Of a stretch of DNA of 37,444 nucleotides, positions 1 through 37,444 are shown in pieces. The translations under genes and the position numbers were made by a program. Numbering within the stretch: the stretch's first letter is position 1; each line of letters opens with the position of its first letter. Source of the DNA: a virus; IMG/VR virus record IMGVR_UViG_3300044957_000447, positions 1 to 37,444 of that record; one strand, 5' to 3'. The notes under the pieces are model-generated. The model saw nothing but the letters and a program-made list of their open reading frames with translations. It was not told the origin of the DNA and did not search any database.

Positions 1-2694
1 AGCTTCGCCACCACCCGATTTTTTACTTTCTCCACCGGTTTCACCACCGGTTGGCTCACCACTTGCAGGTTCACTTTCACCGGTTAGATCAACTCCGCCG
101 CCAGCTTCTCCACCGGCTCCGGCACCACCTTCTTTATCTTTTGACTTTAAAAATACTAGCGCGGGGTCATTACCTTCATCCTCAATTTGCTTAAACCTAT
201 AAGATCCCTTGGCATCATCAAAAAGTTGTTTTTGTAATTCAATCATGTCTTGGTCACTCATACCAAATACATTTTCATATACCCATTTCTTACTAAACAA
301 CTTTTGTTCAGCCATGTCTTTGCTAACCTCAACCTTGCTCTTCCATACATCAATCTTTTCTTTTTCAAATATTGTAGAAGGATTGGTAAGTTCAAGACTA
401 AAATCAACCAACGATTCATCTCTATATCCTTGACTATATAAGTGAACCACAGCAATCTTGTTCAATTCACTAACAATAATACGTTGTACACGTTGAATAG
501 TACGTGCAAAACGAATATCTTCTGCTGCCAACGTTGCTTTGCCAGAAAGCGATTCATCATAACCCAAGAATGCCTTTGGAATTTTGAGTGCTGCCATCAT
601 TTTGTTTCGTAGATATTCAATATCGTCTGTACCAGTCCATTCCAGACCAGGCAAGTTATCAATACTGGTTCCGCTGTCTCCACCACGAACTGGCAAGAAA
701 ATGTCTTCAACCATGTTTTGTAGATTGAAACGAAGGTTGTAGTCACCTGTGTTTTGATCCAAATATGGAGTTTTCTTCATTTGTTGAATGATGCGATCTA
801 CGTGATTATCAACTTCATTTGGAGGAATATTACCAATATCAATCTTGAATATTCTCTTTTCTGGAGCACGCATGATACGATGAATTAACATTGCGTCTTC
901 CATCAAACTCAATTGTTTCCATACACGACGTGCGCCTTCTAATATACTCTTACCATATGGCAAGAAATTGCTATCACTCAACAATCTAAAATGTGCTATT
1001 TGATAATTTTCACATTCCTCGATTTTATTTCCATATGGCAAATTAACTTGGAATTTAACAAAATTTTTATTTGTTAAATGTGCATTTTCAATACGAGTAA
1101 CATAATAGCTGCTAAGGGGCTCTACCATGTATACACCATATTCTGGACTGATGTACAATCTCATATAAAAATCACCATATTTAACCAAACTACGAGTCCA
1201 ACTCCAAAGGTTGAATTCGATATTGAGAATGTCGTAGAACAAGTTGTTTAAGATGTTTTTAATTTCATCGTTGTTTGAACGAACTGCGATTACATCACCC
1301 ATCTCATTTCGTGTAGTACATTCGTCCGCATAAATGTCCAAAGCAGATGCCAAAATTGGGTCCATGTCCATTGTATTTGAAACGAAACAACTATCTGTTG
1401 CAAAATTTTCGTATTTTTCGACAGTAACATCATATACATCAACTTCACCGATCTGTTCTATTGATACTATTTTATGGTTTAATGTAGAAACCACTTCATT
1501 TTTGAATGATTTCCAATCGTGTCCTTCTTTTTTGAGACGATTTTGTAGAGTTGACTGATCACAATTAATATGTGCAATAAAATCCCACAAATTAATTTTT
1601 GAATATTCTTTATAGTATTCAAAAGCTTTTTCTTTTACATTCTCAAAAGTAACATCATGACGATATTTTGGATTTTTAATATCCGTTTGATCTCTATCCT
1701 TAAATGTTTCTTTTAATGTAGAATATCGTTTTTCATTGGATTCGTCGGAACGAGTTTTTCCGTAAAATGGGTTATTTTTCTCAGAACGTTCTCCATCCCA
1801 TCTGTAAAACTTTCTGTTGATATAACTTGGATGCGATTTTAACTTATTAAGTTGATTTTGATAATTATTATCTCCCCACAGTATATTTTTATTATATTCA
1901 CTGTGATATTTTTTGTGTTCTTTCCAATCCATTATGAGTAGATTGTCCGGAGAATTATTGGAACCATTTATATCTAAATGATGAACCACTTCATTTTTTC
2001 CAAGTGTTCTGTAAAATTGTTCAGCTACAATTTTATGTTCACTTTGCCATCCTTTTGAAAAATTGTATAAACGACGATATCTTTTAAATCCATGTTTTTT
2101 ATAGCCATATCCTTTCTGATAAAATGGCATTATAGAATCACCAACTCGGAGTTCAAATGTTCTTTTATATGTACCGTCCCTCATCATAAATGGATGTTTA
2201 AGACTCGCTATAATATATTGTCCGTTGTCAAATGTAACTTTATATCCTTGTCGTTTTCCACTTTTCTTTCTCGGATGATAAGCTTTTCCTAGCTTAATAC
2301 TGTCAGTTTCGTGGTCATACGAGAATACATAAAATCTTTCTTGTGGTTTATCTTTATATTTCTCAGCAAGTTCTGCTATTGTTGGAGTTGTTCCATCAGG
2401 CAACGGAACAATCGTATCTGGTCCCACGCAATCATAATCTCTAAACAGCTCTACACGACTGCTTTGATAACTAAGATTAAAGTCTCTTGTATATTGATTA
2501 TACGATGTTGTACGAAGTCTATTAAAACGGTCTCTTAGGCTGTTACGGTCTGTTGCGTATTGTATTTCATCGGTATCAATTACTTTTAATTTTTTACCAC
2601 CGACATTTCTTACAATAACATCGTTGCTAAACAATCGTTTTAATCTAGCAAATAATGAACGATTCTTTAGCTCTTGAAATGTGTTATCAGCCAT
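1..2694 (-). CDS. gp20: Portal protein (gp20-like), interrupted by an intein; 3' end outside window
   Basis: Forms the dodecameric portal at the head vertex through which DNA is packaged and to which the tail attaches. Translating from ATG 2694 gives one frame open to base 1. The N-terminal extein is residues 1-88, an intein covers 89-440, and the C-terminal extein runs from 441 to at least 898. The extein around the junction (VELFRDYD / TMDMDPILASALDIYADE) and the later APEKRIFKIDIGNIP and IPKAFLGYDESLSGKATLA segments fit T4-type portals. The visible end becomes Gly/Glu/Ser-rich (about residues 850-898), probably a flexible tail. The gene starts 26 bases after the terminase gene, the usual packaging-gene neighbourhood. 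No clear Shine-Dalgarno sequence precedes the start. The frame was checked codon by codon and has no stop. The portal call is strong; the true C-terminus is not visible. Confidence 0.9.
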   Translation of the reverse strand, partial: MADNTFQELKNRSLFARLKRLFSNDVIVRNVGGKKLKVIDTDEIQYATDRNSLRDRFNRLRTTSYNQYTRDFNLSYQSSRVELFRDYDCVGPDTIVPLPDGTTPTIAELAEKYKDKPQERFYVFSYDHETDSIKLGKAYHPRKKSGKRQGYKVTFDNGQYIIASLKHPFMMRDGTYKRTFELRVGDSIMPFYQKGYGYKKHGFKRYRRLYNFSKGWQSEHKIVAEQFYRTLGKNEVVHHLDINGSNNSPDNLLIMDWKEHKKYHSEYNKNILWGDNNYQNQLNKLKSHPSYINRKFYRWDGERSEKNNPFYGKTRSDESNEKRYSTLKETFKDRDQTDIKNPKYRHDVTFENVKEKAFEYYKEYSKINLWDFIAHINCDQSTLQNRLKKEGHDWKSFKNEVVSTLNHKIVSIEQIGEVDVYDVTVEKYENFATDSCFVSNTMDMDPILASALDIYADECTTRNEMGDVIAVRSNNDEIKNILNNLFYDILNIEFNLWSWTRSLVKYGDFYMRLYISPEYGVYMVEPLSSYYVTRIENAHLTNKNFVKFQVNLPYGNKIEECENYQIAHFRLLSDSNFLPYGKSILEGARRVWKQLSLMEDAMLIHRIMRAPEKRIFKIDIGNIPPNEVDNHVDRIIQQMKKTPYLDQNTGDYNLRFNLQNMVEDIFLPVRGGDSGTSIDNLPGLEWTGTDDIEYLRNKMMAALKIPKAFLGYDESLSGKATLAAEDIRFARTIQRVQRIIVSELNKIAVVHLYSQGYRDESLVDFSLELTNPSTIFEKEKIDVWKSKVEVSKDMAEQKLFSKKWVYENVFGMSDQDMIELQKQLFDDAKGSYRFKQIEDEGNDPALVFLKSKDKEGGAGAGGEAGGGVDLTGESEPASGEPTGGETGGESKKSGGGEA
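1375..2430 (-). other. Intein with HNH homing endonuclease inside the portal protein
   Basis: In-frame protein insertion of 352 residues that should splice itself out of the portal. It begins with Cys1 (CVGPDTIVPLPDG, block A) directly after the portal motif FRDYD. Intein residues 75-79 (SLKHP) look like block B with Ser in place of the usual Thr. The ending VYDVTVEKYENFATDSCFVSN is like blocks F and G. Its last Asn is followed by Thr as the +1 nucleophile, and the usual penultimate His is Ser. The centre holds an HNH nuclease (VVHHLDINGSNNSPDNL then EHKKYH, about residues 148-176). A NUMOD3-like stretch (NNPFYGKTRSDE, about 219-230) and a possible helix-turn-helix (about 280-310) follow. The parts are complete enough to expect both splicing and homing, but the Ser before the terminal Asn could slow splicing. 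Confidence 0.9.
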
Positions 2695-2720: not shown

Positions 2721-4202
2721 TTACAATAACCAATTTAAACTTTCTTTTTTACCTCCAGCAACTCCTCCTTGTACTTCACCCGCACTGAATTGCCAAGTTC
2801 TCATAGGATCGTCAACCGGACTTACATCTCGTACATCTTTAGTAACCATAACCCCCGAATCTTTTCTGGTTATTTTGCCAAGCATCGCTCGATTATATGC
2901 AATCTGCTCATTGCGGAGTTTCAAAGCAGTTTCTCGTACCCAAAGTCCTATACCAAATGACATTACTAAATCGTCATTATAACCTTTCATAGCTTCTGCT
3001 TTTGGTCCGTTCCATACAAATACATTTAATTCTTCCAATATTCTGTTTGATTTTATAATAATTTGTTTTTGACGAAAAAATAGTTCTAAGTTACTAATAA
3101 CCAACGGTCTAGTTTTAGTTGTAGTACTAAAACCTGGTATTAGTTTTTTATCTTGACTGTTAAGTTTATTTGTATATGTTTTTTCTACATCTACAATAGC
3201 CAAATCAGCTGAACTATAAAAAGTATTTTGATAATCTCTATCTATAACTTGTTGTAGAGCTGCCCATCCTTGATTGTTATTTTCTACTACCAATAAAGCA
3301 TTATTATATTCCGTAGCTACGGTTACTAACAAATTGCCGTAGTCTTTCGTAGTTAACTGACCTTTATATTCAGCCACTTGTTCCATTGTTTCTATATCAA
3401 TTATATGAAAAGCACTAAAGTCTGCTCCATCTCCTCTAGCACAGTCAGCCGTAACCATATAATTTTTACTATAGTTTGGATAGTCCCAGATCCATAAATC
3501 TTGTCGATTGCCCCGTCTTTCTATAGGATCTTTAATATAAGTTTGTTTATAAAATTCAAGAATATCAGTATTTACAACTTGATTACCCGATGTTGAAAAA
3601 TTACAATCACATTCTTGTGCAGCACCTTTTACACCTGATAATTCAGTTTGTTTGTCACGCCAAGATTGGTCTCGCTCCGGATGTAAATGCCAAGGCAAAC
3701 TTATAGTTTTAAAATTATTTTTTCCTTCTTCAGCTTCAACCCAAGTTTTGTGGAAAAAATTACCTACACCATTCGGAGTACTTAATACAATTGCTCTACC
3801 ACCGGTGCTTAATGTATATTGAGAGGATAACCATATTTCTTCTATACCATCAATAAATGCACAATTATGACTTACAACATCGTTGGAATAAAATTCTTGA
3901 TTTTTTTCAATATTCAATAAATCATACAAATCGGTTTTTTTAACAATTGTTCTTTTTGATTTTACAATTTTATCTATACCATTTTTTCCCTGTAATATCA
4001 TTCCGTTTTTAATTTGTAAGGCATATATAAATGTATTATCTTTTAATTTAAGTTTATGTGATGTCGAACATTCTATATGAGTTTCATCTTCGAAAACAAT
4101 TTTAACAATTCTATCTTTAACAACCTTTTTAATGCCTGAAAAATTGCTCCAACCAGATGGAGTCAATACTTCCCAGTCATTTATATTTTTAATATCACTC
4201 AT
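2721..4202 (-). CDS. terL: Large terminase C-terminal gene: split-intein C-half plus nuclease domain
   Basis: Second half of the DNA-packaging motor ATPase/nuclease. Residues 1-113 are the C-terminal part of a split intein. Residues 114-493 are the rest of the terminase, beginning CAFIDGIEEIW, which continues the Walker B strand left at the end of the upstream gene. GGRAIVLSTPNGVGN (about 134-148) is the ATPase coupling region. The RNase H-type nuclease shows Asp253 in TADCARGDGADF, Glu307 in VVENNNQG, and Asp410/411 in KGYNDDLVMSFG. The two exteins total 160 + 380 = 540 residues, a reasonable terminase length. ATG 4202 is the only possible ATG in this frame because a stop lies nine bases upstream. 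It lies in a different frame from the N-terminal gene, so splicing in trans is needed. The Shine-Dalgarno sequence is weak. Confidence 0.9.
   Translation of the reverse strand: MSDIKNINDWEVLTPSGWSNFSGIKKVVKDRIVKIVFEDETHIECSTSHKLKLKDNTFIYALQIKNGMILQGKNGIDKIVKSKRTIVKKTDLYDLLNIEKNQEFYSNDVVSHNCAFIDGIEEIWLSSQYTLSTGGRAIVLSTPNGVGNFFHKTWVEAEEGKNNFKTISLPWHLHPERDQSWRDKQTELSGVKGAAQECDCNFSTSGNQVVNTDILEFYKQTYIKDPIERRGNRQDLWIWDYPNYSKNYMVTADCARGDGADFSAFHIIDIETMEQVAEYKGQLTTKDYGNLLVTVATEYNNALLVVENNNQGWAALQQVIDRDYQNTFYSSADLAIVDVEKTYTNKLNSQDKKLIPGFSTTTKTRPLVISNLELFFRQKQIIIKSNRILEELNVFVWNGPKAEAMKGYNDDLVMSFGIGLWVRETALKLRNEQIAYNRAMLGKITRKDSGVMVTKDVRDVSPVDDPMRTWQFSAGEVQGGVAGGKKESLNWLL
3864..4202 (-). other. C-terminal half of a split intein (IntC, 113 residues)
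   Basis: Residues 1-113 of the downstream terminase gene. VLTPSGWSNFSGIKKV then IVFEDETHIECSTSHKL form the early intein beta strands and a block B-like segment (STSH, with Ser at the usual Thr position). DLYDLLNIEKNQEFYSNDVV followed by SHN is the block F/G ending with His-Asn, and the next residue is Cys. Layout and wording resemble, from memory, the AceL-TerL family of atypically split terminase inteins, whose long C-part starts with its own Met. Together with the 33-residue N-part the intein totals 146 residues, a mini-intein with no room for an endonuclease. Strong call on structure; splicing activity is inferred. Confidence 0.9.
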
Positions 4203-4279
4203 ATATTTTTAGTCTCAAATGATATAGAAATTTATTCATCGAGGAGTGTTGAGTTTTATCAACCTCACAAAACGTTATG
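4203..4279 (-). other. Break between the two split terminase genes
   Basis: Seventy-seven bases separate the stop of the N-terminal terminase gene from the ATG of the C-terminal gene. No endonuclease or other protein is encoded here. A small hairpin can form at 4244-4266 (stem gttga/tcaac plus gag/ctc around one bulged base), with no T-run after it on the minus strand, so it is not a typical terminator. The motif AGACTAAAA lies just before the downstream start (4207-4215). Confidence 0.6.
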
Positions 4280-4861
4280 TTATATATATTCTTTTTGCTC
4301 ATATAATTCACCAATATTAACCGGCTTCACTTCACCAGTCAATTTGTTACGAATGTATATAGTATTGTGAAACCCCAAACACTCATCAATAATTAATAGT
4401 GACAAAGCTGTTGAACGACCTGCGGTGCCAGCACTAGATACCGCTTTGATTTGAGATCCATTTTTAAGACGCAGTGATAGACGATTGTCTTCTATACATG
4501 GAACCTTTAACCAAGCTGGAAGATTATCATTTGCAAACCTAACTTTTGTAACGATTTCTTTTGCGGTTTCTTGAGTAATACTAATACAGAGAATATTCTT
4601 ATCACTGTGAAACGTCATCAACCATAAACTATAAGCCGATGTGAGCGTGCTAATGCCCATCTGTCTACTTTTAAGAACTATGTTAAGACTGTTTTCAACG
4701 AAATCTTTAAGTGTACTTTCTTGAAATGGATACAACTCAAAGTTTACAGTTCCTCTTACAGGATGTTGTATTTTAACATACTTTTTTATGAAGTATATAG
4801 GGTCTTCTATACACTTCTTATATTCACTTTTTATTATTTCTCTTAGATTTGGCTGACTCAT
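4280..4861 (-). CDS. terL: Large terminase N-terminal gene: ATPase half plus split-intein N-half
   Basis: First half of the packaging ATPase. Residues 1-160 are extein: an adenine-binding/Q-motif region (ELYPFQ, 42-47), a deviant P-loop LKSRQMGIST (63-72), a central ATPase strand region (NILCISITQETAKEIVTKV), and a Walker B strand ending LLIIDE (155-160). In T4 gp17 this acidic pair is followed by CAFI; here residue 161 starts an intein instead. Residues 161-193 are the intein N-part, then a stop. The P-loop lacks Lys just after Gly; a Lys five residues earlier (Lys64) could serve, as in lambda gpA (KSARVGYS). The start overlaps the previous gene by 38 bases and has a good AGAGG six bases upstream. 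This protein alone cannot be a working terminase; it needs trans-splicing. Confidence 0.92.
   Translation of the reverse strand: MSQPNLREIIKSEYKKCIEDPIYFIKKYVKIQHPVRGTVNFELYPFQESTLKDFVENSLNIVLKSRQMGISTLTSAYSLWLMTFHSDKNILCISITQETAKEIVTKVRFANDNLPAWLKVPCIEDNRLSLRLKNGSQIKAVSSAGTAGRSTALSLLIIDECLGFHNTIYIRNKLTGEVKPVNIGELYEQKEYI
4283..4381 (-). other. N-terminal half of a split intein (IntN, 33 residues)
   Basis: Residues 161-193 of the upstream terminase gene. It begins with Cys1 in CLGFHNTIYIRNKLTGEVKP and continues VNIGELYEQKEYI before a TAA stop. This matches intein block A and the strand after it, with the typical IxELY pattern. The split comes before block B, unlike DnaE-type split inteins, which break after about 100 residues, so it is an atypical split site. 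It should bind the C-part encoded at 3864-4202 and join LLIIDE to CAFIDG. Confidence 0.9.
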
Positions 4862-7295: not shown

Positions 7296-8801
7296 TTATT
7301 TCCGAATCCATTCAAATTTCATATGTCCACAGTCCCAAATTCTATCATAATCATTAAGTTGCATATTTTGCCATTCACTTAAATTATTATCAAACTTGTC
7401 AAGTTTTTTACTTAATTTATGTTTTTGGAAATGGGTTCTTTCAATTAGTACACCTTTATTTTTATGAAAATAATGATATCCAGGAGGAGTATTATCAACA
7501 AAACTCAGCCCAATTTGATTGTATAAATTACCAGTAAATAACCGTCTATCACTGTATGTCACAATAGAATTTACAGCATAGTTTTTTGTAAAATAATCAA
7601 ATAATTTAGAAGCGCCCCCTATGACATTTGTATTCAATAAATTACAGTATCTAGACAATTCGTACTGATATTTTTTGTCATATCTGGATTTAACAAATGT
7701 CATCAAGCAAACCAAGTTGTCTGCATAGTATAAACTCAATCTTATAGAAGATGTATCATCTCCCTGTATATGATTATTAATGAGAAAGGTTGATTTATCA
7801 TCATTATTTACCTCTTTAATAATACATTTTCTAGCATAAATTTTTTTAGATTTACCAATTTTATTTAATAAAATGCTTTTTATTATATCTTGTTTACATC
7901 TCCATTCCCAATCCCATATGTGCATCAAATTTATATTTTTATTTGAAGATAATGTTGTTTTATTTAAATGATAATCTTTATTTTTACCACCCGCAAGTTC
8001 ACTGTGCCAATATATTCCGTCACATTCTATACCTAAATTTAAATGCGGCATTACAATATCAATTTCTTCTCCGTCTAATACACTTCTATCGTGGTGTTTC
8101 GTTGTAATATTATGTGAATGTAAAAAACCCAAAATTTCAGTTTCAATTGAAGATTTAAACCTATTATGTGGATTGCATATTAAACATCTAGGTATATTTC
8201 CTGAATATAAATTATCTTCAAACTCATTATTACATATACAACATTTGAATTTATATAAATTATTATAATCTGTCCCTACATATTCACTTTTGTTAAATAA
8301 TGGAGTAACTATACCTTTCAATCTATTTCCTTCAAAAATGTTATGTAAAGATTCTTGAATTTTATGAGTTCTTCGTTTTTCCTTTACCGATGATAATTGA
8401 GATATATTATCAATGTTATTATTTTCCAAATATTGTTTATATTTTTCAGACTTAAAACCAATTTCCCCACTATTAGCTCTTTCTTTTGTTTTTTTAAGAG
8501 TATTTGGAGACACATTCATGCCATACTTCTCATTGTTGGTTTTTAACATTTTTTCTCTATTATTAAAATTTTTATCTCCGTATTTCTCCAGTTTAGTTTT
8601 TTTGCTTTTTTCTAAATTATTGTAATTTTCATCGCCATATCTCTCTTTTAAAGTTTCTTTCATTTTGGAAATCATATTATCATATGCACCATTTTCCCTT
8701 TTCCGTTTTATTTTTTCTTTAACACTGGGCAATTGTGATGGATGATATACACCATATTTTTTAAAAAACGATTCTCTAATTTTTTTACCTCTTTCAGTCA
8801 T
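7296..8801 (-). CDS. Free-standing Vsr-like homing endonuclease
   Basis: About 501 residues from ATG 8801. This start has AGGAG eight bases upstream; an in-frame TTG at 8807 is too close to it. The N-terminal 140 residues carry repeated KYG-type motifs (KKYGVYHPSQ, ERYGDENYNN, EKYGDKNFNN, EKYGMNVSPN), typical of modular DNA-binding repeats of homing enzymes. A zinc-ribbon-like Cys cluster follows (CCIC and CLIC). The nuclease core shows EEIDIVMPHLNLGIECDGIYWHSE with Asp248, Glu259, Asp261 and His266, fitting the Vsr-fold EDxHD homing endonuclease family (I-Bth0305I type). The C-terminal domain (INNHIQGDDTSS, YSDRRLFTGNLYNQIGL) is often linked to such nucleases. It should cut a specific site and promote its own spread. 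That family is known from fractured phage genes with split inteins, and a split intein lies 3 kb away. Confidence 0.85.
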   Translation of the reverse strand: MTERGKKIRESFFKKYGVYHPSQLPSVKEKIKRKRENGAYDNMISKMKETLKERYGDENYNNLEKSKKTKLEKYGDKNFNNREKMLKTNNEKYGMNVSPNTLKKTKERANSGEIGFKSEKYKQYLENNNIDNISQLSSVKEKRRTHKIQESLHNIFEGNRLKGIVTPLFNKSEYVGTDYNNLYKFKCCICNNEFEDNLYSGNIPRCLICNPHNRFKSSIETEILGFLHSHNITTKHHDRSVLDGEEIDIVMPHLNLGIECDGIYWHSELAGGKNKDYHLNKTTLSSNKNINLMHIWDWEWRCKQDIIKSILLNKIGKSKKIYARKCIIKEVNNDDKSTFLINNHIQGDDTSSIRLSLYYADNLVCLMTFVKSRYDKKYQYELSRYCNLLNTNVIGGASKLFDYFTKNYAVNSIVTYSDRRLFTGNLYNQIGLSFVDNTPPGYHYFHKNKGVLIERTHFQKHKLSKKLDKFDNNLSEWQNMQLNDYDRIWDCGHMKFEWIRK

Positions 8802-8809
8802 ATACAATA

Positions 8810-24880: not shown

Positions 24881-25622
24881 CACAACTAAATTCGCCTGTA
24901 CATATGTATTTTGCGAGTCCTTGTTCACAGTAATTTACTACACTTCCTGTATTTTCAGCAGATCTTTCAAAATCGTTGATAAAATATGTACCCGATAAAA
25001 ATAAATTATTATAACCATCGTCGTGAATGTTTGCAACCACATCTCCAGTTTGATTATTTATAATAACGCTAAATGGTCGAATTTTATCTCCGCTTTGCGT
25101 GACATTTAATGAATATAAACCAAATGTATTAGACAAATTTAATTTTGCTTGTGAAGTAATGTATCCATCAAACCCAAAAATGTTATACGAATTGTTATAA
25201 TTATTATAAAACATGTTTTTTATAGTATTATAAACCAGACCTTGATATGTTCCATCCTCATTAACAGGATTTACATCAAAATTATATTGTATATCGTCCA
25301 CCGTATAAAATGGAATATCAGATGTATATTTTTTACCGATTTGAAAATGTGGATTATTTTCGTCGATAATTGGAGAACAAGCCAAGTATCCGCTTTCATT
25401 TAATACATTATATTGACACGACTCAAATATCGTTGTCAATGATTCTGATACATTTGAAGTATTAAAATTGTAATTACACTCTTCAATTGGAATTAATAGT
25501 GGAAATGAATAATTTTTATCATTTGCCAATATCAAATCCAAGAACAAATTGTTTGCTGTCTTTTGTTTAGACACAGCAAAATTTGCGATCTGAATATCTT
25601 GATTTTTTAAAAATTTAACCAT
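24876..25622 (-). CDS. Virion-type protein of unknown function
   Basis: 248 residues, family not recognised. It is rich in Asn, Tyr, Phe and Ser with predicted beta structure throughout (PLLIPIEECNYNFN, IRPFSVIINNQTGDVVANIHDDG). Six or so cysteines are spread out, and the C-terminus is cysteine-containing (NYCEQGLAKYICTGEFSCV). No membrane segment or signal peptide. Its place among tail and baseplate genes and its composition suggest a tail or adhesin subunit. The start ATG follows directly on TTAGG, too close for a working Shine-Dalgarno sequence. Confidence 0.6.
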   Translation of the reverse strand: MVKFLKNQDIQIANFAVSKQKTANNLFLDLILANDKNYSFPLLIPIEECNYNFNTSNVSESLTTIFESCQYNVLNESGYLACSPIIDENNPHFQIGKKYTSDIPFYTVDDIQYNFDVNPVNEDGTYQGLVYNTIKNMFYNNYNNSYNIFGFDGYITSQAKLNLSNTFGLYSLNVTQSGDKIRPFSVIINNQTGDVVANIHDDGYNNLFLSGTYFINDFERSAENTGSVVNYCEQGLAKYICTGEFSCV

Positions 25623-25655
25623 CCTAATATAAATAGGAAGATTTTGTTAAGTTTC

Positions 25656-26771
25656 TCAAAAATCTATCCGAACCTTAATCAAAAGTTCGTTGTCAAATGA
25701 TTTTTGAGCGGGTGCGCTTAATTTTCCGATTGCCAATAATTCATTGTTAAAATCGTACAATCCAACCGTGGTTATGTAAGTTCTTGGATTTGTAATCAAC
25801 TCTGGATAAATTATAGTTCCTCTCGTTTGTCCGTCTGTACCATCAGACACAAATGTCGGATTGTTACTATAATTAAATTCTTTATTTTTAACTCTAACAA
25901 AGTAATTGGATGATGGAACAAATTCGGATTTACGAACTGCCATATTTTTGTTTGATTTTTTCAAACTCAAATAGAATTTTCTCAACCAATTTCTCCAGTA
26001 ACCTTTAAACGATGTTGAGTAGAAATTGGAAGTTCTAGTAGTTGTAATTTCTTGATTAGGAGTTGCAGCCGTAATACCAACCTTAGCATCTAATTTTATA
26101 GCATTTAATATTACTACTCCATTTGTTGGATAAAATAGACCCATTCCTTCATAATATGCACTGGTAGAGCCTCCATTCGTAAATGGAGTTGGAACTCCGT
26201 TTACTACGGATCCAGAAATTAAATTATACACATTTTGTTGAACATTTATAACTTGAGAATCGTCGATATAGGAATATTGACCATTTGCACCGCTAAAATT
26301 TAATTGAATTTGACCAGGATCAATTTGATCCTGGAATTTGTCGGCCACATAGTTCAAAACAAAAATTGCAGTGCTATCAACCGATTTATCAATACTTCCA
26401 GATGCAAAGCTAAAGTAGTTATCGCCCGGTTGTAACAGCGTATTTTTATACTGTGTATAAATCACCTTAGTTTCGTTTGTCAAAACATCTGCGGTACCAT
26501 TGTTTGGATAATCTAATTTGCTACTTCCACTATTTTCATAGTCACCATATGCTATGGAAAAATATTCATCTCCACCACTGTATACATCAATATAATATTG
26601 TCCATTTTTAACATCATACGGAGATGATCCTGTCAAAACATTGGCCTGTGCGGATGATGTAATGAATGTAGACTGTGCGATTGTTAAACTTCCAGTGCCA
26701 AACATACCAGAAGAAACTTGATTTATTCTTCCTGCTACAATATCGTCGGTTGTAAATTTAGTAAATATCAT
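25656..26771 (-). CDS. Tail/baseplate structural protein sharing a C-terminal module with the propeller protein
   Basis: 371 residues, no T4 homologue recognised. The N-terminal part is rich in Ser, Gly and Asn and looks beta-structured (SGMFGTGSLTIAQSTFITSSAQ, YFSIAYGDYENSGSS). A basic segment (YWRNWLRKFYLSLKKSNKN, about residues 265-284) follows. The last 75 residues (FVRVKNKEFNYSNNPTF and YITTVGLYDFNNELLAIGKL) closely resemble the end of the 875-residue propeller protein. That module is therefore probably how both attach to the same tail or baseplate partner. Eleven bases after its stop codon's far side the upstream 214-residue gene ends, so the genes are transcribed together. Confidence 0.65.
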   Translation of the reverse strand: MIFTKFTTDDIVAGRINQVSSGMFGTGSLTIAQSTFITSSAQANVLTGSSPYDVKNGQYYIDVYSGGDEYFSIAYGDYENSGSSKLDYPNNGTADVLTNETKVIYTQYKNTLLQPGDNYFSFASGSIDKSVDSTAIFVLNYVADKFQDQIDPGQIQLNFSGANGQYSYIDDSQVINVQQNVYNLISGSVVNGVPTPFTNGGSTSAYYEGMGLFYPTNGVVILNAIKLDAKVGITAATPNQEITTTRTSNFYSTSFKGYWRNWLRKFYLSLKKSNKNMAVRKSEFVPSSNYFVRVKNKEFNYSNNPTFVSDGTDGQTRGTIIYPELITNPRTYITTVGLYDFNNELLAIGKLSAPAQKSFDNELLIKVRIDF

Positions 26772-37129: not shown

Positions 37130-37444
37130 TTAACCCAAAGGAGATTTTGGTAAATTTAATAATGCTTGAGCACCTTTTGTATTGTCGGGTCTTGGTATTT
37201 TTACTGTTTTAATACGGGGTGTGTTTGTTGGTTTTGGTATATTTGGCTTTGGTAATCCTTTTTGTACACCAGCTAATTTTGCGGCCGCAGCACCAACAGC
37301 GCCACCTAAAACAGCTCCTATACCAGCTCCTTTACCACCACCAACTAATCCGCCGATACCAGCTCCTTTACCACCACCAACTAATCCGCCGATACCAGCT
37401 CCTTTACCACCACCAACTAATCCGCCGATACCAGCTCCTTTACC
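37130..37444 (-). CDS. Gly-rich protein, C-terminal end only (gene continues beyond window)
   Basis: The visible 104 codons run into the right edge with no start. The frame is open from base 37444 and ends at TAA 37130-37132. It begins with at least three copies of a 12-residue unit GGLVGGGKGAGI, then GAVLGGAVGAAAAKLAGVQ, a Pro/Lys/Asn/Thr-rich linker (LPKPNIPKPTNTPRIKTVKIPRP) and ends LLNLPKSPLG. The Gly/Ala pattern resembles glycine-zipper segments that insert into or pass through membranes. This could be a tail-tip, lysis or head-associated protein; too little is visible to say. Confidence 0.7.
   Translation of the reverse strand, partial: GKGAGIGGLVGGGKGAGIGGLVGGGKGAGIGGLVGGGKGAGIGAVLGGAVGAAAAKLAGVQKGLPKPNIPKPTNTPRIKTVKIPRPDNTKGAQALLNLPKSPLG
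37320..37444. repeat. 36-bp tandem repeat in the Gly-rich gene
   Basis: Unit ataccagctcctttacca plus caccaactaatccgccg, exactly 36 bases (12 codons), with copies starting at 37320, 37356, 37392 and 37428. The first three are complete and identical and the last is cut at the window edge. It keeps the frame and encodes GGLVGGGKGAGI. Identical DNA copies suggest recent expansion or an assembly edge effect. Confidence 0.95.

What the first reader, a model, noticed from the sequence alone, without database searches (positions are those of the whole stretch)
2721..4861. Large terminase split into two genes joined by an atypically split intein
The upstream gene ends LLIIDE then an intein N-part of 33 residues (CLGFHN...) and a stop. 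After a 77-base gap and a frame change, a new gene starts with 113 residues of intein ending SHN, followed by CAFIDG. The insertion is exactly at the Walker B / catalytic Glu of the ATPase, so no active motor can form without trans-splicing. The short N-part and Met-started long C-part fit the AceL-TerL type (recalled, not searched). The homologue differs in sequence and may have its own kinetics.
Basis: partly seen in the sequence, partly recalled or inferred. Interest (0 to 1): 0.82.

Follow-up and report, generated by a model that had tools for sequence, protein, structure and literature searches.

The report
Packaging motor gene split by intein
A phage encodes its DNA-packaging motor as two separate proteins, each carrying part of a self-splicing "intein" that should stitch them together exactly at the motor's catalytic site; it is a new member of a known kind of system, best read as a split intein that has lost its accompanying DNA-cutting gene.

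Summary
On the minus strand, ORF 4861..4280 encodes terminase residues 1-160 (…LLIIDE) plus a 33-residue IntN; a 77-base gap follows; ORF 4202..2721 encodes a 113-residue IntC (…VVSHN) plus CAFIDG… (380 residues). Dozens of intein-free relatives are contiguous at exactly this Walker B/catalytic-Glu point. IntC matches the solved split intein CatC (6dsl) by sequence (E 4e-14) and by fold. The split is natural: about 30 phage records share it.

(2) In most same-site relatives the gap holds an endonuclease ORF; here it is absent, so this looks like a "fractured gene" without its homing gene. (3) Exteins are 95-97% identical to L001 but inteins only ~50%, and the trees conflict (AU p=0.0006): the intein turned over laterally. 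(4) Of 113 related loci with DE|xAF/GF and no intein, 109 have Ala at +1; this lineage's carriers have the required Cys.

Splicing itself is untested. Known kind, new member.

The parts
4382..4861 (-). TerL N-extein, residues 1-160 (Walker A-like SRQMGIST; Walker B ...LLIIDE)
   Evidence: PF03237 above cut-off; phrog_5989 E=2.5e-42; 97% identical to L001
4283..4381 (-). IntN, 33 residues, starts with Cys1
   Evidence: aligned with same-site relatives; stop codon 4282..4280
4203..4279 (.). 77-base gap where relatives carry an endonuclease ORF
   Evidence: no ORF, no similarity to relatives' endonuclease
3864..4202 (-). IntC, 113 residues, own ATG, ends ...VVSHN
   Evidence: CatC 6dsl E=3.8e-14; fold match to 6dsl
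2721..3863 (-). TerL C-extein, 380 residues from Cys+1 (CAFIDG...), motif STPNG and nuclease part, with stop
   Evidence: 94% identical to L001; phrog_2

Best explanation
The phage large-terminase gene was invaded at the codon after the catalytic Glu (DE|C) by a split intein of the short-IntN class. The two genes are translated separately; IntN (33 aa) docks on IntC (113 aa) to complete a HINT fold; Cys1, Cys+1 and Asn113 carry out class 1 protein trans-splicing, giving a 540-residue TerL with a seamless Walker B motif. Neither half alone has a complete ATPase centre, so packaging depends on splicing (inferred). The gap is where an endonuclease gene lies in most relatives; this allele most likely descends from a 'fractured gene' (IntN - endonuclease - IntC) that lost the endonuclease while the split stayed. 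The intein lineage moved laterally between related phages. Shown: anatomy, homology, fold of IntC, empty sites, tree conflict. Inferred: docking, splicing, endonuclease loss.
For: ORF anatomy and exact empty sites. IntC to CatC 6dsl E=3.8e-14, profile 8e-25, best fold match. All splice residues present and conserved. Same-site split loci with an endonuclease-like ORF in the gap: L001, L081, L147, L155, L157-L167, L174-L178, L190, L203, L218 and isolates HY03, TG1, PspYZU05; short gap without an ORF of 100 aa: window, L150-L152, L154, L156, L179/L180. +1 residue is Ala in 109 loci without the intein and Cys in the window, L001 and L081, a two-base change. Extein tree joins window with L001 (100/98) while the intein tree puts L001 with L157 and L081; holding window+L001 inteins together is rejected, p-AU 0.0006. 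dN well below dS in the intein parts of L001-L081 (0.039/0.37; 0.065/0.83) and dN<dS for window-L001.
Against: No experiment shows splicing. dS between the window's intein and its nearest kin is near saturation, so selection on this particular intein is weakly measured. The gap holds no recognisable endonuclease remnant, so loss versus never having had one is decided only by relatives, and deep forks among inteins with and without endonuclease are poorly resolved. IntN alone gave no intein match in the PDB. The wider genome is not available.
Confidence: 0.9

Rival explanations
1. The two halves work as a two-chain terminase without splicing, as some genes-in-pieces enzymes do; the intein parts only hold the halves together, or are dead.
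For: A phage ribonucleotide reductase in pieces that keeps its function is cited in PMC3322345. Association through the intein parts would still bring the halves together.
Against: All catalytic splice residues are intact; Cys+1 goes with intein presence against Ala in 109 empty alleles; unspliced, 146 intein residues would remain in the ATPase centre.
Confidence: 0.06
2. The split is a decayed gene or an assembly error of a contiguous intein; the true gene is one ORF, or another copy exists.
For: Contiguous same-site inteins exist (L099 phage SRB7757, L110 VmeM-32, L181, L188); the record is an incomplete contig.
Against: Several stops and a frame change would have to be undone; IntN ends at 32-34 residues in most independent same-site relatives; extein dN/dS is low; no second terL in the record.
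Confidence: 0.03
3. The intein is still mobile with an endonuclease acting in trans, the 503-aa homing endonuclease at 8807..7296.
For: It is a homing endonuclease (phrog_3339 E=7e-109), 2.4 kb from TerL on the same strand.
Against: The same gene sits in the same place beside intein-free terL (L117, L119, L123, L131) and beside terL with inteins at another point (L118, L125). One search compared the gap ORFs only with one another, so its relation to them was not measured.
Confidence: 0.05

Closest known systems
Walker-B-site TerL inteins of isolated phages (HY03, vB_YenM_TG1, PspYZU05; JK32, kaaroe, Thanatos-2; Campylobacter phage Los1)
   Same: same insertion point DE|CAFI, short IntN, homologous IntC (30-42% identity), N and C genes separate
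   Different: gap filled by an endonuclease ORF, or IntN fused to it; in Los1 the halves lie about 24 kb apart on opposite strands
AceL-TerL / GOS-TerL / engineered Cat (PDB 6dsl)
   Same: host protein TerL, short IntN (25 and 37 aa), long IntC, split after the first helix (PMC13014065; PMC11766414); homologous IntC and fold; Cys1/Cys+1 as in AceL
   Different: natural inteins closest to Cat are at the |CEFLG site (L195, E=1e-42); ours is at Walker B with Ala, not Glu, at +2; GOS-TerL has Ser1
Fractured genes (Dassa et al. 2009; cited in PMC7090010; full text not held)
   Same: relatives L001 and L081 have the layout split intein plus separate endonuclease gene between the halves
   Different: no endonuclease gene here; relatives' gap endonucleases are TnsA-like by Pfam and were not tested against the Dassa endonuclease family
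IMG/VR contigs L001 and L081
   Same: same site, IntN 33 aa, IntC start at the homologous codon; L001 exteins 95-97% identical
   Different: endonuclease ORF of 350-357 residues in the gap; inteins only about 50% identical; penultimate residue Ser instead of His

Membership tests
T4 gp17-like large terminase | terminase profiles on both halves, with Walker A and Walker B | tested here: met
   PF03237 above cut-off on the N half; phrog_5989 and phrog_2
Class 1 intein | Cys1, block B His, terminal Asn, Cys/Ser/Thr at +1 | tested here: met
   C1; H49, D94, H112, N113 in IntC; C+1
Class 1 intein | HINT fold | tested here: met
   IntC model pLDDT 87.5; best PDB match 6dsl, then other inteins
Class 1 intein | splices | not testable with these tools
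   needs expression
Atypically split intein with short IntN | natural IntN of 15-37 aa on one gene and a long Met-started IntC on another | tested here: met
   33 aa and 113 aa; range from PMC13014065
AceL/GOS-TerL allele | inserted before Cys-Glu-Phe in TerL | tested here: not met
   ours is DE|CAF; Cat-like natural inteins sit at |CEFLG.
Fractured gene with endonuclease | endonuclease ORF between the two halves | tested here: not met
   77-base gap, no ORF, no similarity to relatives' endonuclease

The most novel reading that the evidence does not exclude
The Walker B point of TerL is home to an old family of split inteins that can lose the endonuclease yet stay split for long periods and is repeatedly replaced laterally between nearly identical phages; the need for trans-splicing at the catalytic Glu would act as a built-in delay that switches packaging on only when both halves have accumulated.
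Probability: 0.12. Interest if true: 0.65.

Novelty: new member of a known kind. Interest (0 to 1): 0.42.

Why it matters
It adds a natural Cys1/Cys+1 split intein with a 33-residue IntN at an extein context (DE|CA) different from that of AceL/Cat (|CE), hence a possible orthogonal labelling tool. It also belongs to a graded natural series at one point of one gene (contiguous; split with endonuclease; IntN fused to endonuclease; split without endonuclease; halves 24 kb apart) on which the origin and fate of fractured genes can be tested, with the +1 Ala/Cys residue as a marker for intein gain and loss.

Tried and rejected
Endonuclease remnant in the gap: only 13-14-base chance matches. Structured gap RNA: z -1.0. 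Frameshift or readthrough product: multiple stops. The 503-aa endonuclease as cognate homing enzyme: present beside intein-free and differently interrupted alleles. Cellular genomes with this intein: 82 pattern matches, none confirmed. IntN alone against the PDB: no intein match, too short. PF03354 in the own record: no match, another terminase family. Dassa 2009 and the Cat histidine paper are not held. On exteins, a clade L001+L157+L081 without the window is not rejected by itself (p 0.086), but L001+L157 as extein sisters is (p 1e-6). One search sorts loci by simple rules and holds near-duplicate contigs, so its counts are approximate.

Full report
Observation. The upstream gene (4861..4280, minus strand) holds 160 residues of a T4-type large terminase ending LLIIDE, then 33 residues of intein N-part and a stop. 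After 77 bases and a change of frame, the second gene (4202..2721) starts with 113 residues of intein C-part ending VVSHN and continues CAFIDG for 380 residues. In intein-free relatives such as L003-L040 the two extein parts match back to back, with no base between. The insertion is scarless and lies right after the Walker B Asp and the following Glu; that this Glu is the catalytic one rests on general knowledge of T4 gp17.

Is it an intein? IntC matches CatC of PDB 6dsl at E=3.8e-14 and, as a profile with ten same-site relatives, at 8e-25, followed by gp41-1 and VidaL. An AlphaFold model of IntC (pLDDT 87.5) has 6dsl chain B as its best structural match and other inteins after it. Cys1, block B His49, block F Asp94, penultimate His112, Asn113 and Cys+1 are all present and conserved. 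Splicing itself was not tested.

Is the split real? Yes. A profile-guided scan and searches of phage records found about 30 records with a split intein at the same point, most with an IntN of 32-34 residues and a separate IntC gene. They include isolates: Tequatrovirus HY03, Yersinia phage TG1 and Pseudomonas phage PspYZU05 with an endonuclease gene between the halves; Krischvirus JK32 and kaaroe and Shewanella phage Thanatos-2 with the endonuclease fused behind IntN; and Campylobacter phage Los1 with the halves at 2-718 (minus) and 24983-26311 (plus) of its genome. Nitratidesulfovibrio phage SRB7757 and Vibrio phage VmeM-32 have one contiguous ORF.

The gap. In most relatives it holds an ORF of about 200-580 residues. 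Eleven of the fourteen compared are homologous to each other, and a TnsA-like nuclease domain is found in those scanned (L167 below the curated cut-off); L147, L190 and L203 carry another type (DUF7487). In the window there is no ORF and no trace of one. The IntC start codon corresponds to that of L001, where the endonuclease ORF overlaps it by four bases. The simplest reading is an endonuclease gene lost while the split remained. Among split loci the intein tree needs at least three changes between with and without endonuclease, but its deep forks are unsure. That the ancestor carried an endonuclease is inferred, not shown.

Turnover. The window and L001 share 96.9% and 94.5% of extein residues but only 51.5% and 49.6% of intein residues; L001 and L081, whose exteins are 80-89% identical, have inteins 85-91% identical. 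The extein tree joins window and L001 (100/98); the intein tree joins L001 with L157 and L081. Forcing window and L001 inteins together is rejected (p 0.0006), and so is forcing L001 and L157 exteins together (p 1e-6). The intein has therefore moved or been replaced laterally.

The +1 residue. 109 loci without an intein at this point read DE|AAF...; four have DE|C without one (L128, L133, L136, L140); the window, L001 and L081 have Cys. Ala to Cys takes two base changes. This fits an intein that brings or requires its own nucleophile; the Cys-empty alleles may be scars of intein loss. More distant TerLs have other residues, and in T4-like phages Cys may be native, so the association is claimed for the close relatives.

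Relation to AceL-TerL. The literature puts AceL-TerL (25-residue IntN) and GOS-TerL (37) in the group split after the first helix, and Cat is their consensus. Natural inteins most like Cat lie at a different TerL point, E|CEFLG (L195: 6dsl E=1e-42, with Cys-Glu after the splice point in both). The window's intein is a homologue at another point, so 'AceL type' is right for the architecture but not for the allele. A further group sits at ECD|CDF in close kin (L048, L082 and others).

Neighbouring endonuclease. The 503-aa ORF at 7296-8807 is a free-standing homing endonuclease found next to intein-free and differently interrupted terL genes alike, so it is unlikely to be the missing partner.

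Verdict. A real, well-supported naturally split TerL intein at the catalytic site: a new member of a known kind, in an endonuclease-free state shared by a few relatives. What remains is an experiment showing that the halves ligate.

Noticed in passing
window 1-2694 (-): The next gene, the T4-like portal (Gp20), carries a contiguous intein of about 350 residues with HNH_3/NUMOD3 endonuclease parts (Intein_splicing E=1e-16). Two packaging genes in a row are thus interrupted by inteins of different kinds.
   Followed up: partly
window 7296-8807 (-): 503-aa free-standing homing endonuclease (phrog_3339), conserved in place downstream of the tail sheath gene in many related phages.
   Followed up: yes
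L133:7540-7768 and L140:9348-9576: TerL with Cys at the Walker B point but no intein there, and the start of another intein-like insert at a third point (AIILS|CVTDDTYVF); both contigs end inside it.
   Followed up: partly
L048, L050, L082-L096, L125: Close kin carry a split intein at another TerL point (ECD|CDF), some with a 250-aa endonuclease ORF in the gap, some (L082, L083, L089, L125) without.
   Followed up: partly
L097, L113, L229 (Campylobacter phage Los1): TerL halves about 24 kb apart on opposite strands, both with intein parts and annotated as separate terminase proteins: a dispersed split gene.
   Followed up: partly
L106 (Campylobacter phage IBB_35): At least three intein C-parts match within the terminase region, described in its paper as an intein plus an intron; the 'intron' may be split inteins.
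   Followed up: no
L150, L156: The gene after TerL in several distant kin (portal position) also shows intein-like matches.
   Followed up: no
window 37130-37444 (-): Tandem GKGAGIGGLVGG protein repeats at the contig end.
   Followed up: no
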